From Acidovorax sp. NCPPB 4044 (GTDB taxonomy: Bacteria > Pseudomonadota > Gammaproteobacteria > Burkholderiales > Burkholderiaceae_C), in contig NZ_JAMCOS010000001.1 in the NCBI RefSeq assembly GCF_028069655.1, positions 2,944,001 to 3,008,000 of the forward strand: a stretch of DNA of 64,000 bases, in the 5' to 3' direction. The position numbers and the translations under genes are program-made. The notes under the pieces were generated by a model, which was not told where the DNA came from, ran no database searches, and saw only the letters and a list, made by a program, of their open reading frames with translations. Shown here piece after piece: positions 21,858 through 46,639 of this stretch (position 1 is its first letter; every line of letters begins with the position of its first letter).

Positions 21858-21874
21858 TTTTGGAACCCTGGGGG

Positions 21875-21911
21875 CTTCATGCCGTCGGATTCATTGAATA
21901 GTTTGCTATTG
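21875..21911 (-). repeat. dispersed intergenic repeat, copy b
   Basis: Reverse-oriented copy of the 8475-8510 unit forming the left tip of the giant palindrome (ATTCATTGAATAGTTTGCTA). Confidence 0.85.
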
Positions 21912-22749
21912 TTTTTGTAGTTGATTTTTGGTTACGTTGGGCTCTGCGGCTCTGCGCCGTGGCGGGGTTTTGTTTTTGGTTTTTTTCCCGGGGCCGGGTC
22001 TCGGCCCGGCGGCCGAGGCACTTTTCTTTGCTTCGCCAAAGAAAAGTGCCCAAAAGAAAGGCGACCCTGCTGGCTGCGTCCCCCTTCGCCCGATGGGCGA
22101 AGGGGGCAACCTGCGGTGCTCGGTCACGGGGCGCGGCTGCGAAACTCGCTACGCGCTGGCGCGCTGCGCTCGGACATCGCAGCCAGTCAGTTCACGAAGC
22201 GTGCGTGTCCTTCGGCACGCCCGCGCGCCCCGCGCCCTGTGCTCCTCGGCGCATCCAGAAGGGAAGCTGCCGCACACGGGCCATCGCTGCGCTCGGCCTG
22301 GAGTGCGCGAGTGCTTCGCACCGCGCACCCATTTTCTTCGGAGGAAGCGGCGCTCTGCCGGGCCGAGCGCAGCGACGGCCCCCCAGGCCGAGCAAAGCAA
22401 TGGCCCGAGGGGCTTGCGCAGGCCGAGCGGAGCGACGGCCCGGAACGCCCCTTCTGGATGCGCCTGGGGCGCGCAGGGCGCGGGGTGGCGGGTGTGCCGC
22501 AGGACACACCCGCTTCAACATCTGGCTCGCCGTGGCTGTCCGAGCGGAGCGCGCCAGCGCGCAGCGAGTTCCACGGCGCACCCCGCGACCGAGCACCCCA
22601 GGTCGCCCCGCAGCGCAGCGAAGGGGTCGCAGACAGCAGGGTCGCCTTTCTTTTGGGTACTTTTCTTTGGCGAAGCAAAGAAAAGTGCCTCGGCCGCCGG
22701 GCCGAGACCCGGCCCCGGGAAACAAACAAAAAACAAATCCCCGCCACTG

Positions 22750-22791
22750 CGCAGGGCGCAGGGCGCGAGGCGCGAGGCGCGAGGCGCGAGG
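22750..22791 (+). repeat. heptamer tandem repeat in palindrome copy 1
   Basis: Two CGCAGGG units followed by four CGCGAGG units. The same site in the second palindrome holds fifteen CGCAGGG units, so the array varies in both number and sequence. Confidence 0.9.
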
Positions 22792-22821
22792 CGCAACGTA
22801 ACCACCAATCAACTACAAAAA

Positions 22822-22858
22822 CAATAGCAAACTATTCAATGAACCCGCCGACATGAAG
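22822..22858 (+). repeat. dispersed intergenic repeat, copy c
   Basis: Right tip of the giant palindrome: CAATAGCAAACTATTCAATG then AACCCGCCGACATGAAG, in inverted orientation to copy b. Confidence 0.85.
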
Positions 22859-22867
22859 CCCCCAGTA

Positions 22868-44802: not shown

Positions 44803-45610
44803 TTTCGAGGGTTGTCTTTTTTTTGCGCTGTCGGTGGTTGGCTGCTGATGGCTTTGGCGGGGATTTGTTTTTTGTTTGTTTCCCGGGGCCGGGTCTCGGC
44901 CCGGCGGCCGAGGTACTTTTCTTTGCTTCGCCAAAGAAAAGTACCCAAAAGAAAGGCGACCCTGCTGGCTGCGTCCCCCTTCGCCCGGGGGGCGAAGGGG
45001 GCAACCTGCGGTGCTCGGTCGCGGGGCGCGGCTGCGAAACTCGCTACGCGCTGGCGCGCTGCGCTCGGACATCGCAGCCAGTCAGTTCACGAAGCGTGCG
45101 TGTCCTTCGGCACGCCCGCGCGCCCCGCGCCCTGTGCTCCTCGGCGCATCCAGAAGGGAAGCTGCCGCACACGGGCCATCGCTGCGCTCGGCCTGGGGTG
45201 CGCGAGTGCTTCGCACCGCGCACCCATTTTCTTCGGAGGAAGCGGCGCCCTGCCGGGCCGAGCGCAGCGACGGCCCCCCCAGGCCGAGCGAAGCAAAGGC
45301 CCGGAACGCCCCTTCTGGATGCGCCTGGGGCGCGCAGGGCGCGGGGTGGCGGGTGTGCCGCAGGACACACCCGCTTCAACATCTGGCTCGCCGTGGCTGT
45401 CCGAGCGGAGCGCGCCAGCGCGCAGCGAGTTCCACGGCGCACCCCGCGACCGAGCACCCCAGGTCGCCCCGCAGCGCAGCGAAGGGGTCGCAGACAGCAG
45501 GGTCGCCTTTCTTTTGGGTACTTTTCTTTGGCGAAGCAAAGAAAAGTACCTCGGCCGCCGGGCCGAGACCCGGCCCCGGGAAACAAACAAAAAACAAATC
45601 CCCGCCACGG

Positions 45611-45715
45611 CGCAGGGCGCAGGGCGCAGGGCGCAGGGCGCAGGGCGCAGGGCGCAGGGCGCAGGGCGCAGGGCGCAGGGCGCAGGGCGCAGGGCGCAGG
45701 GCGCAGGGCGCAGGG
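45611..45715 (+). repeat. CGCAGGG heptamer array, 15 units
   Basis: Fifteen exact 7-base units in the right arm of palindrome copy 2. The equivalent site in copy 1 (22750-22791) has six units, four of them changed to CGCGAGG. A clear minisatellite-type locus, probably length-variable between strains. Confidence 0.95.
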
Positions 45716-45745
45716 CGCAACGTAACCACCAATAAACTACAAAAA

Positions 45746-45782
45746 CAATAGCAAACTATCCAATGAATCCGCCGGCATGAGG
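45746..45782 (+). repeat. dispersed intergenic repeat, copy e
   Basis: CAATAGCAAACTATCCAATG then AATCCGCCGGCATGAGG, the right tip of palindrome copy 2. The IS1-family element is inserted 9 bases beyond it. Confidence 0.85.
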
Positions 45783-45791
45783 CCAAAAACC

Positions 45792-46608
45792 GGGATTGCT
45801 AAATAGGTATTTGAACCGGTTCATCCCACAAACGTGTGCTCTCAATGCAGCCCACCTGGGTCTGCAGCACAGCGCCGAACTTGCGCCGCCAGATAAACAG
45901 CAGCGCATCCCTGAGCGCCTGTGCGCTCTTGCTGTACGCATGGGTCTTTCTGCGCAGGCGTGCCAAATAACAGCGCAGCTTGTTGTTCAGGCTCTCAATG
46001 TGATGGGTATGGGCTTTGCCCACCGTATGGCGCCTGCCCGCGAGGACCGCAAGATAGGGCCTGTGGTGGTCGGTGCAGTATTCAATGTGGGCTGCACTCG
46101 CAGAGGGCGGCAATTGCTGCTGCAGTACCCGGGCGGTGGCAGCTCCTCTATCGCCCAGGGCCCAGCCCACGATGCGGTGCGTGCTGCGCTCTATGGCCCA
46201 CCAGAGCCAGATGGGTCTTTTTTGGAACCCGCGTAGCTCCACATCTCGTCGATCTCCACGACCTGCTGGGTCGCAGGTGGTATCGGCTGCAGGGCTTGGT
46301 CTGCCACCTCCTTGCGCACCCAGTTCAGCACGGAGTTGTGGCTCACCCCCACGATGCGCTCGATCGCCCTTGCAGACATGCCTTCGGCATACAGCGCCAG
46401 TGCCCGCTCCCGGGTCTGGCTGTCGATCAGACGGTAGTTCTTGTCGCCGAAGGTTCGCCCGCAGGCTTTGCACGCCCAGCGTCGGTGACCATGTCGGCTC
46501 GTGCCGGCGTTGCGGACTTCTTGGTGCTGGCAGTCGGGGCATTGGAGGGTCATGTGGGCGAGCATGCCTCCGATTGCGTCTTTGGTCCACTACCTGGTTA
46601 GCAATCCC
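45792..46608 (-). mobile_element. IS1-family insertion sequence
   Basis: 817 bp. Ends GGGATTGCTAAATAGGTA (left) and, on the other strand, GGGATTGCTAACCAGGTA (right) form imperfect inverted repeats. They are flanked by an exact 8-base duplication CAAAAACC (45784-45791 and 46609-46616), in the IS1 range. It encodes the two-frame InsA/InsB transposase on the minus strand. Intact ends and duplication suggest a recent insertion at the edge of palindrome copy 2. Confidence 0.92.
45799..46565 (-). CDS. IS1-family transposase (InsA-InsB' fusion through -1 frameshift)
   Basis: First frame 46565-46191: zinc-ribbon CPDCQHQEVRNAGTSRHGHR, WACKACGRTF, then the helix-turn-helix GMSARAIERIVGVSHNSVLN. Second frame ends at 45799: the DDE part includes EIDEMWSYAGSKK at the junction, WWAIERSTHRIVGWALGDRG, YCTDHHRPYLAVL, HHIESLNNKLRCYLARLRRK and the tail RRKTHAYSKSAQALRDALLF. 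The shift is most likely on the AAAAAA run (complement of 46218-46223), and the second frame is reached by one base back, as in IS1. No stop or gap is seen in either part, so it may be active. Confidence 0.88.
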
Positions 46609-46639
46609 CAAAAACCCATAACACTCCCAGAATCCCCCC

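What the first reader, a model, noticed from the sequence alone, without database searches (positions are those of the whole stretch)
21875..22858. A ~980-bp giant palindrome built from collinear inverted arms, present twice in the window
Reading the right arm backwards reproduces the left arm in order: the dispersed repeat tip, GTTACGTT, the GC-rich CCCGGGGCCGGGTCTCGGCC block, the perfect 12-base-stem hairpin at 22019-22048, GGCGACCCTGCTG, AACTCGCT...GCGCTGGCGC, CGGCGCATCCAGAAGGG and further toward a centre near 22366. Copy 2 is at 44856-45782. It encodes no credible protein, is nested (hairpins within a hairpin) and sits between convergent genes both times. It could be a non-autonomous mobile element, a long structured RNA read from either strand, or a two-way transcription barrier. 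I know of no named family like this.
Basis: partly seen in the sequence, partly recalled or inferred. Interest (0 to 1): 0.85.

Follow-up and report, generated by a model that had tools for sequence, protein, structure and literature searches.

The report
Inverted arms ending in triplex RNA pseudoknots
The giant palindrome is a pair of mirror-placed copies of one structured-RNA-like arm, ending in a knot with a predicted three-stranded helix; it is repeated in many proteobacteria, sometimes with a single gene between its arms, and what moves it is unknown.

Summary
The palindrome is real: copy 1 21868-22865 (75% self-inverse over 1051 columns), copy 2 44855-45607 plus a right-hand tip. It is non-coding and lies between convergent genes. 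It belongs to a large repeat family. Each arm carries, from outside in, the same ~96-nt module. Covariation on 131 distinct modules shows a hairpin, a pseudoknot between its loop and downstream bases, and base triples: a third tract follows the hairpin's purine strand (757 of 769 cells; 80% when third strands are dealt among modules; 41-63% in other registers). Read outward (centre to tip) this is an H-type pseudoknot with a U*A-U / C+*G-C major-groove triple helix. The module occurs in 94 of 370 class genomes (78 of 273 genera), with up to 86 matches in one, often as inward-facing pairs; some pairs enclose one gene (Shedu, Schlafen-like, methyltransferase, orphans). In 21 of 63 arm types, not in the window's, the outward strand adds A(N)GGA-loop hairpins (CsrA-site-like); Rfam TwoAYGGAY matches 1 of 44 loci scanned. 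Best reading: a non-autonomous interspersed element whose ends act as outward structured RNA. Mobiliser, transcription and function are not shown. No reverse-transcriptase association; a weak, uncontrolled one with Y1 transposases.

The parts
21868..22865 (.). Copy 1, whole inverted repeat including outer tips
21986..22722 (.). Copy 1 core element shared with orthologous copies
21986..22082 (-). Left-arm module; the proposed outward RNA strand is the minus strand (CM R1, 95.4 bits, model written on the inward strand)
   Evidence: covariation
22017..22050 (-). Left-arm hairpin S1 (purine strand of the triple helix 22022-22029)
22052..22059 (-). Left-arm third strand TTTCTTTT, predicted T*A / C*G triples with 22022-22029
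22033..22064 (-). Left-arm span holding the pseudoknot stem S2 (22060-22064 with hairpin loop 22033-22037)
21990..22016 (-). Left-arm second pseudoknot PK1 (weaker support)
22624..22720 (+). Right-arm module; proposed outward RNA strand plus (CM R1, 93.6 bits); third strand 22647-22654, hairpin 22656-22689, purine strand 22677-22684
21868..21985 (+). Outer tip (dispersed repeat) and spacer; absent from six orthologous copies, present in G005
22721..22865 (-). Mirror tip with a GGCGCGA tandem array at 22762-22794
44855..45607 (.). Copy 2 core inverted repeat
44881..44977 (-). Copy 2 left module (outward strand minus)
45485..45581 (+). Copy 2 right module (outward strand plus)
45609..45780 (.). 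Copy 2 right side: 16-copy GGCGCAG array, then one tip repeat

Best explanation
The palindrome is a non-autonomous interspersed element made of two inverted copies of one structured-RNA arm. Read outward from the centre, each arm ends in an H-type pseudoknot whose pyrimidine-rich first loop lies in the major groove of its long stem as about eight U*A-U / C+*G-C triples, followed by a second pseudoknot and an A/C-rich tail; in some lineages, not the window's, CsrA-type A(N)GGA hairpins precede it. Because the arms are inverted, a transcript leaving the element in either direction ends in this fold. Some copies enclose a passenger gene reading toward an arm, which then lies in its 3' UTR. Shown by sequence: repeat family, covarying hairpin, pseudoknot and triples, location mostly between gene 3' ends, passenger genes, occupied and empty sites. 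Inferred: that the outward strand is expressed, that the triple helix protects or sets RNA 3' ends, that CsrA binds in some lineages, and that an enzyme supplied in trans moves the element.
For: APC-corrected mutual information over the column pairs of 131 distinct modules (effective number 61) ranks hairpin pairs, loop-downstream pairs and triple columns at the top; model R1 had only the hairpin pairs. Structure count: 88.4% paired, 26 of 27 pairs with two-sided changes, covariation score 0.386 against 0.143 shuffled and at most 0.109 slid. Triples: 757 of 769 cells in register; third strands dealt among modules give mean 79.9%, maximum 84.1% of 500; shifted registers 41-63%. 102 of 131 modules have runs of 8 or more. 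Strand: wobble at the stem base 22.5 outward against 1.5 inward (weighted; 18.8 against 1.3 from one pair); A(N)GGA-loop hairpins in 21 of 63 outward against 3 of 63 inward interiors, shuffle mean 4.1, maximum 8, two or more in 14 against 0; TwoAYGGAY on the outward strand in L106 and, below cut-off, L060. Spread. Context: 51 of 79 elements between convergent, 5 between divergent genes. Passengers. Occupied and empty sites.
Against: No mobiliser found; no clear target-site duplication by eye in the edges of 40 copies. The locus of copy 1 is occupied in 8 of 17 species, so copies can be old and inherited. A full transcript folds into one long hairpin (-635 kcal/mol, z -28.6 from 20 shuffles), which would compete with the pseudoknots. 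Nested folding of single arms does not tell the strands apart: z -6.4 outward and -5.3 inward (left), -1.8 and -2.1 (right). No promoter-like site. The inward face is terminator-like. Strand evidence rests largely on one base pair plus hairpins that the window's copies lack on both strands; PK1 wobbles lean inward if anything (39.0 against 28.1 weighted, with 172 mismatches) and PK1 is only 70-80% paired. Most triple variation is at two adjacent columns; the others are nearly always T-A-A. TwoAYGGAY passes its cut-off in only 1 of 44 distinct relative loci scanned. Modules were first gathered with a pattern requiring A-rich downstream sequence.
Confidence: 0.6

Rival explanations
1. A REP/BIME-like element: the outward single-stranded DNA hairpins are recognised by a Y1 (IS200/RAYT) transposase in trans.
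For: Inverted pairs resemble BIMEs; wobble asymmetry also fits ssDNA.
Against: Not controlled for phylogeny or genome size. In nine genomes where the capped lists show both (compared by eye) no Y1 gene was next to a module; the nearest was about 10 kb away. Arms are hundreds of bases, not 20-60 (REP size recalled). CsrA-type hairpins point to RNA.
Confidence: 0.18
2. A two-way intrinsic terminator or transcription barrier between convergent genes, acting on inward transcripts.
For: Terminator-like sites face inward in both arms (5 such sites in the region, shuffle mean 1.9); 125 of 158 flanking gene sides face the element with their 3' end.
Against: The T tract is broken by C and covaries as a triple helix, which a terminator does not need; does not explain the one-strand hairpins or the passenger genes.
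Confidence: 0.12
3. A SINE-like retroelement: the RNA 3' fold recruits a reverse transcriptase encoded elsewhere.
For: Structured 3' end with an A/C-rich tail; telomerase-like fold.
Against: RVT_1 found in 34 of 94 module-bearing against 102 of 276 other genomes (p 1), and not in the window's own genome.
Confidence: 0.04
4. A DNA-level structure (cruciform plus purine-motif H-DNA) with no RNA role.
For: The inward strand holds a purine mirror repeat able to form A*A-T / G*G-C triples; outside the stem base wobbles hardly tell the strands apart.
Against: Wobble asymmetry at the stem base and A(N)GGA hairpins on one strand.
Confidence: 0.06

Closest known systems
TwoAYGGAY RNA (Rfam RF01731)
   Same: Matches the outward strand just inside the module in L106 (60.6 bits, cut-off 43) and, below cut-off, in L060 (41.5). 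Predicted CsrA binder (PMC4333381, two passages seen); listed as a probable RNA (PMC2864571, one table row seen).
   Different: 1 of 44 relative loci scanned passes the cut-off; no match in the window element. The passages I saw do not mention inverted arms, a triple helix or passengers.
Bp1_684 sRNA (Rfam RF02421)
   Same: Starts inside the hairpin of a lone module in Burkholderia cenocepacia and runs outward; its B. pseudomallei source was detected by RT-PCR (PMC3521395, passages and section 17 read).
   Different: Only half the hairpin is inside the family; 1 of 44 loci; the RT-PCR is not strand proof of the module.
H-type pseudoknots with major-groove triple helices (telomerase RNA, SAM-II and preQ1-II riboswitches; recalled)
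   Same: Pyrimidine loop 1 in the major groove of stem 2, U*A-U and C+*G-C triples.
   Different: Here at both ends of an interspersed repeat, with a run of about eight triples; no ligand or protein known.
REP/BIME, ERIC, MITE, mobile insertion cassettes (recalled; REP and cassette papers seen only in search listings)
   Same: Dispersed inverted repeats in intergenic DNA; cassettes carry passenger genes without transposase.
   Different: Ends are covarying RNA-like folds; no partner enzyme found.
BRE, Betaproteobacterial repeat element (PMC3110155; outline, passages and section 14 read)
   Same: Dispersed, mostly intergenic repeat including Comamonadaceae, found through sRNAs.
   Different: About 90 bp, often in tandem; its sequence is in figures and additional files not held, so not compared.

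Membership tests
TwoAYGGAY RNA | Covariance-model match above gathering cut-off | tested here: not met
   None in window 20000-47000; met in 1 of 44 relative loci, L106.
TwoAYGGAY RNA | Two A(N)GGA-loop hairpins on one strand | tested here: not met
   None in the four window arms on either strand; met in 14 of 63 outward arm interiors of relatives, 0 of 63 inward.
H-type pseudoknot with major-groove triple helix | Loop-downstream stem with covariation | tested here: met
   Columns 48-51 with 85-91, 91-95% paired, two-sided changes at all four pairs.
H-type pseudoknot with major-groove triple helix | Third strand covarying as U*A-U / C*G-C | tested here: met
   757 of 769 cells; 79.9% mean when third strands are dealt anew.
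H-type pseudoknot with major-groove triple helix | Structure shown by experiment | not testable with these tools
   Needs probing, NMR or crystallography.
REP/BIME with RAYT | Linked or co-occurring RAYT gene | tested here: inconclusive
   Co-occurrence with Y1_Tnp p 3e-4 without phylogenetic control; no adjacency in nine genomes compared by eye on capped lists.
MITE / mobile insertion cassette | Target-site duplications | tested here: inconclusive
   Edges of 40 fetched copies in three genomes printed; no clear duplication seen by eye.
MITE / mobile insertion cassette | Ends equal to those of a known insertion sequence | not tested
   No insertion-sequence library at hand.
Retroelement | Reverse transcriptase in hosts | tested here: not met
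   34 of 94 against 102 of 276, none in the window genome.
Protein-coding gene | Codon-position bias and frame-keeping indels | tested here: not met
   81 of 90 gaps break the frame; no Pfam match for the 311-aa ORF.

The most novel reading that the evidence does not exclude
A previously unrecognised class of bacterial mobile gene cassette, spread over Gammaproteobacteria (GTDB sense), whose two ends are inverted copies of an RNA with a telomerase-like triple-helix pseudoknot; the RNA end both protects the passenger's mRNA and is the handle by which an unknown enzyme moves the cassette, with defence genes among the passengers.
Probability: 0.25. Interest if true: 0.95.

Novelty: new variant of a known kind. 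Interest (0 to 1): 0.8.

Why it matters
If right, a repeat present in about a quarter of the sampled genomes of a large bacterial class (94 of 370) is a structured RNA with unusually strong natural-sequence evidence for a long triple helix (a comparison from memory). It would tie a candidate CsrA-binding RNA to an interspersed element in some lineages, suggest a new carrier of defence and orphan genes, and make directly testable whether bacteria use triple helices at RNA 3' ends as some eukaryotic and viral RNAs do (recalled).

Tried and rejected
Coding function: rejected. Rfam: no gathering hit in window 20000-47000; E-value hits in the element were miRNA-like (two, E 0.001-0.005, far below cut-off), another miRNA and a CRISPR repeat, taken as chance. 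Reverse-transcriptase link: none. Target-site duplications: none clear by eye. End-to-end palindrome as the constrained feature: rejected (11 of 44 equal stems, random 9.4). The IS1-type gene beside copy 2 as mobiliser: not pursued; it is outside the inverted repeat. Phage records: no match; plasmid records: 7 with a match, none covering 80% of the query. Papers: ten searches; judged from listings (at most 20 shown; 35, 25 and 7 held) plus four papers opened in part; no description of this element seen. The library lacks most subscription papers and preprints, so this is not proof of absence. The one scan of genome contigs used a 47-base exact pattern, too strict, and gave 3 loci.

Dropped rows and biases: of 31 non-redundant ends I left out two (L035, L064 minus) when typing A1. 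A2 used 99 of the 157 loci then held and the best 150 of 290 matches (131 distinct). In one search the own-against-shuffled run length (7.56 against 6.62) is biased, as stretches were chosen by their own best match; one search replaces it. Gene context: 80 two-module elements listed, one dropped for a short flank; several are orthologous or from one genome, so not independent; gene calls were heuristic. The window control (7 convergent of 35 pairs) includes the two palindrome loci. Of 20 pairs about 0.8-10 kb apart that I fetched, 14 had a plausible passenger ORF by my reading; of 16 proteins scanned, 4 had Pfam matches above cut-off.

Full report
OBSERVATION. Copy 1 is a self-inverse stretch at 21868-22865 (75.4% identity, 1051 columns; bit score 559 against at most 33 in 50 mononucleotide shuffles) and copy 2 at 44855-45607 (79.6%). 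A third near-full copy lies at G000:C1:4353807-4354682. The neighbours are convergent both times. The outermost tip holds a separate dispersed repeat: at least 36 other places by my count (40 of 350 candidates scored). At the orthologous site six printed relatives begin directly at the CCGGAGCCGGG block (L200-L205), while the nearest relative G005 has the tip. The common core is about 21986-22722.

NOT A GENE. The element has long open frames in several frames on both strands. In eight comparisons with other copies, substitutions fall about evenly on the three positions of the 311-aa frame and 81 of 90 gaps are not multiples of three. No Pfam match.

SPREAD. All 17 genomes of the genus that were searched, the own included, carry it. 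A covariance model R1 of the ~96-nt outer module, built from 29 typed ends and holding only the hairpin pairs, hits 94 of 370 genomes of the class at E 0.001 or less (90 of 364 good ones; 78 of 273 genera), 25 of 60 in the family and 39 of 299 in the phylum at 1e-4: 33 in the same class or closer, and 6 weak hits (E 2e-7 to 8e-5) in one other family. Counts per genome are capped. Four genomes searched more fully give 86, 22, 28 and 40 matches, a few of them half hairpins. Modules often come as a plus-minus pair 0.3-0.9 kb apart, as in the palindrome: 10 of 20 and 12 of 17 listed modules in two one-contig genomes, G098 and G141, are in such pairs of any length to 1.6 kb; the rest are single at that threshold. 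Copies in one genome are about 76-93% identical (longest matches).

THE FOLD. On 131 distinct modules (effective number 61) I computed APC-corrected mutual information for the column pairs. The top pairs are the hairpin S1, a loop-to-downstream stem S2 (pseudoknot), and triples (columns 40/64/78, 41/63/79, 42/62/80, 43/61/81) in which a third purine tract on the inward strand changes together with the hairpin: T-A with A, C-G with G. 757 of 769 cells obey this; dealing the third strands anew among modules gives a mean of 79.9% and a maximum of 84.1% in 500 trials; six shifted registers give 41-63%. Most of the variation sits at two adjacent columns; the rarer types (CTCT with GAGA 6, CTTC with GAAG 3) follow too. 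The third strand runs parallel to the hairpin's pyrimidine strand, so it cannot be an alternative Watson-Crick helix; on the complementary, outward strand it is a pyrimidine tract parallel to the purine strand, the geometry of U*A-U / C+*G-C major-groove triples. 102 of 131 modules have eight or more consecutive triples; all four window modules have the same eight. The structure count gives 88.4% paired cells, 26 of 27 pairs with changes on both sides, covariation score 0.386 against 0.143 (shuffled) and at most 0.109 (slid). The alignment was fitted to S1 only, so S2 and the triples were not imposed; but the first ends were gathered with a pattern requiring A-rich downstream bases. A second pseudoknot, PK1, is weaker (70 and 80% paired).

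WHICH STRAND. At the base of S1, wobble pairs possible only on the outward strand weigh 22.5 against 1.5, mostly from one pair (18.8 against 1.3). In the triplex part (0.3 against 2.1) and S2 (2.0 against 1.7) there is no lean, and in PK1 a slight inward lean among many mismatches (28.1 outward, 39.0 inward, 172 mismatches). In 21 of 63 non-redundant arms the outward strand of the interior has hairpins with A(N)GGA loops, against 3 of 63 inward and a shuffled mean of 4.1; two or more in 14 against 0. These look like CsrA/RsmA sites (motif recalled). The window's four arms have none on either strand. Rfam's TwoAYGGAY matches the outward strand next to the module in L106 (60.6 bits, cut-off 43) and below cut-off in L060; that is 1 of 44 distinct loci scanned. 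PMC4333381 (passages) predicts CsrA binding for that family; PMC2864571 (one table row) lists it as a probable RNA. Rfam Bp1_684 overlaps half of a lone module in Burkholderia cenocepacia, running outward; its B. pseudomallei source was detected by RT-PCR (PMC3521395, passages and section 17), which is not strand proof. Nested folding does not separate the strands (z -6.4 and -5.3; -1.8 and -2.1).

ARMS EVOLVE APART. In 33 of 44 elements the two arms have different S1 sequences; 11 equal pairs is what random pairing gives (9.4). So the local fold is kept, not end-to-end pairing. A full transcript of copy 1 would still fold into one long hairpin (-635 kcal/mol, z -28.6), an unsolved objection to both arms acting in one RNA.

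WHERE IT SITS. Of 79 elements with heuristic gene calls, not all independent, 51 lie between convergent, 23 between codirectional and 5 between divergent genes; in the window 7 of 35 adjacent pairs are convergent, two of them the palindrome loci. At the locus of copy 1, 8 of 17 genus genomes are occupied (G000, G002-G007, G014; G005 and G006 seen only to a contig end), G010, G013 and G016 have a short intergenic space, G011 about 300 bp and G001 a CRISPR-like array instead; four could not be judged. Copies are thus partly old and inherited, with gains or losses.

PASSENGERS. Of 20 fetched module pairs 0.8-10 kb apart, 14 have a plausible ORF between the arms, usually one gene. Of 16 proteins scanned, 4 have Pfam matches above cut-off: Shedu SduA (PADLOC 2.5e-88), a Schlafen AlbA_2 / RecG-C-like protein (PADLOC's best models there belong to Argonaute systems), a methyltransferase, DUF4760; the other 12 have none. 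Six pairs (L142, L143, L221, L222, L228, L232) had no convincing passenger.

WHAT MOVES IT. Unknown. Reverse transcriptase: 34 of 94 module-bearing against 102 of 276 other genomes, none in the window's genome. Y1 transposase: 73 of 94 against 157 of 276, p 3e-4, without phylogenetic control. No clear target duplication.

VERDICT. The structural claim (covarying hairpin, pseudoknot and triples in a widespread inverted repeat) is strong; RNA on the outward strand is likely but rests on few lines; a passenger-carrying non-autonomous element is likely; the 3'-end role is an inference. The literature searches here found no account of it, in a library that lacks most subscription papers.

Noticed in passing
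window 21868-21935 and 45720-45780: Dispersed repeat containing ATAGTTTGCTATTGTTTTTGTAG, at 36 or more other places in this genome (my count); forms the outer tips here and in G005 but not in six other orthologous elements.
   Followed up: partly
window 45609-45719 and 22762-22794: Perfect 7-bp tandem arrays GGCGCAG (15.9 copies) and GGCGCGA (4.7 copies) just outside the right module: possible variable-number repeats.
   Followed up: no
L206 (G001) within 1900-2700; L209: CRISPR-like repeats GTTTCAATCCACGC... at the locus that the palindrome occupies in relatives.
   Followed up: no
L153 (G265:C1:4627800-4640200): Three modules in the same orientation with equal scores within 11 kb (a fourth elsewhere), unlike the inverted pairs.
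   Followed up: no
outward tails of modules, e.g. L066, L071, L074, L081: A short hairpin with an NNAG loop about 20 nt beyond PK1 in several lineages may mark the true element end (by eye).
   Followed up: no
window 45799-46611: IS1-type transposase gene directly beside copy 2, outside the inverted repeat.
   Followed up: no
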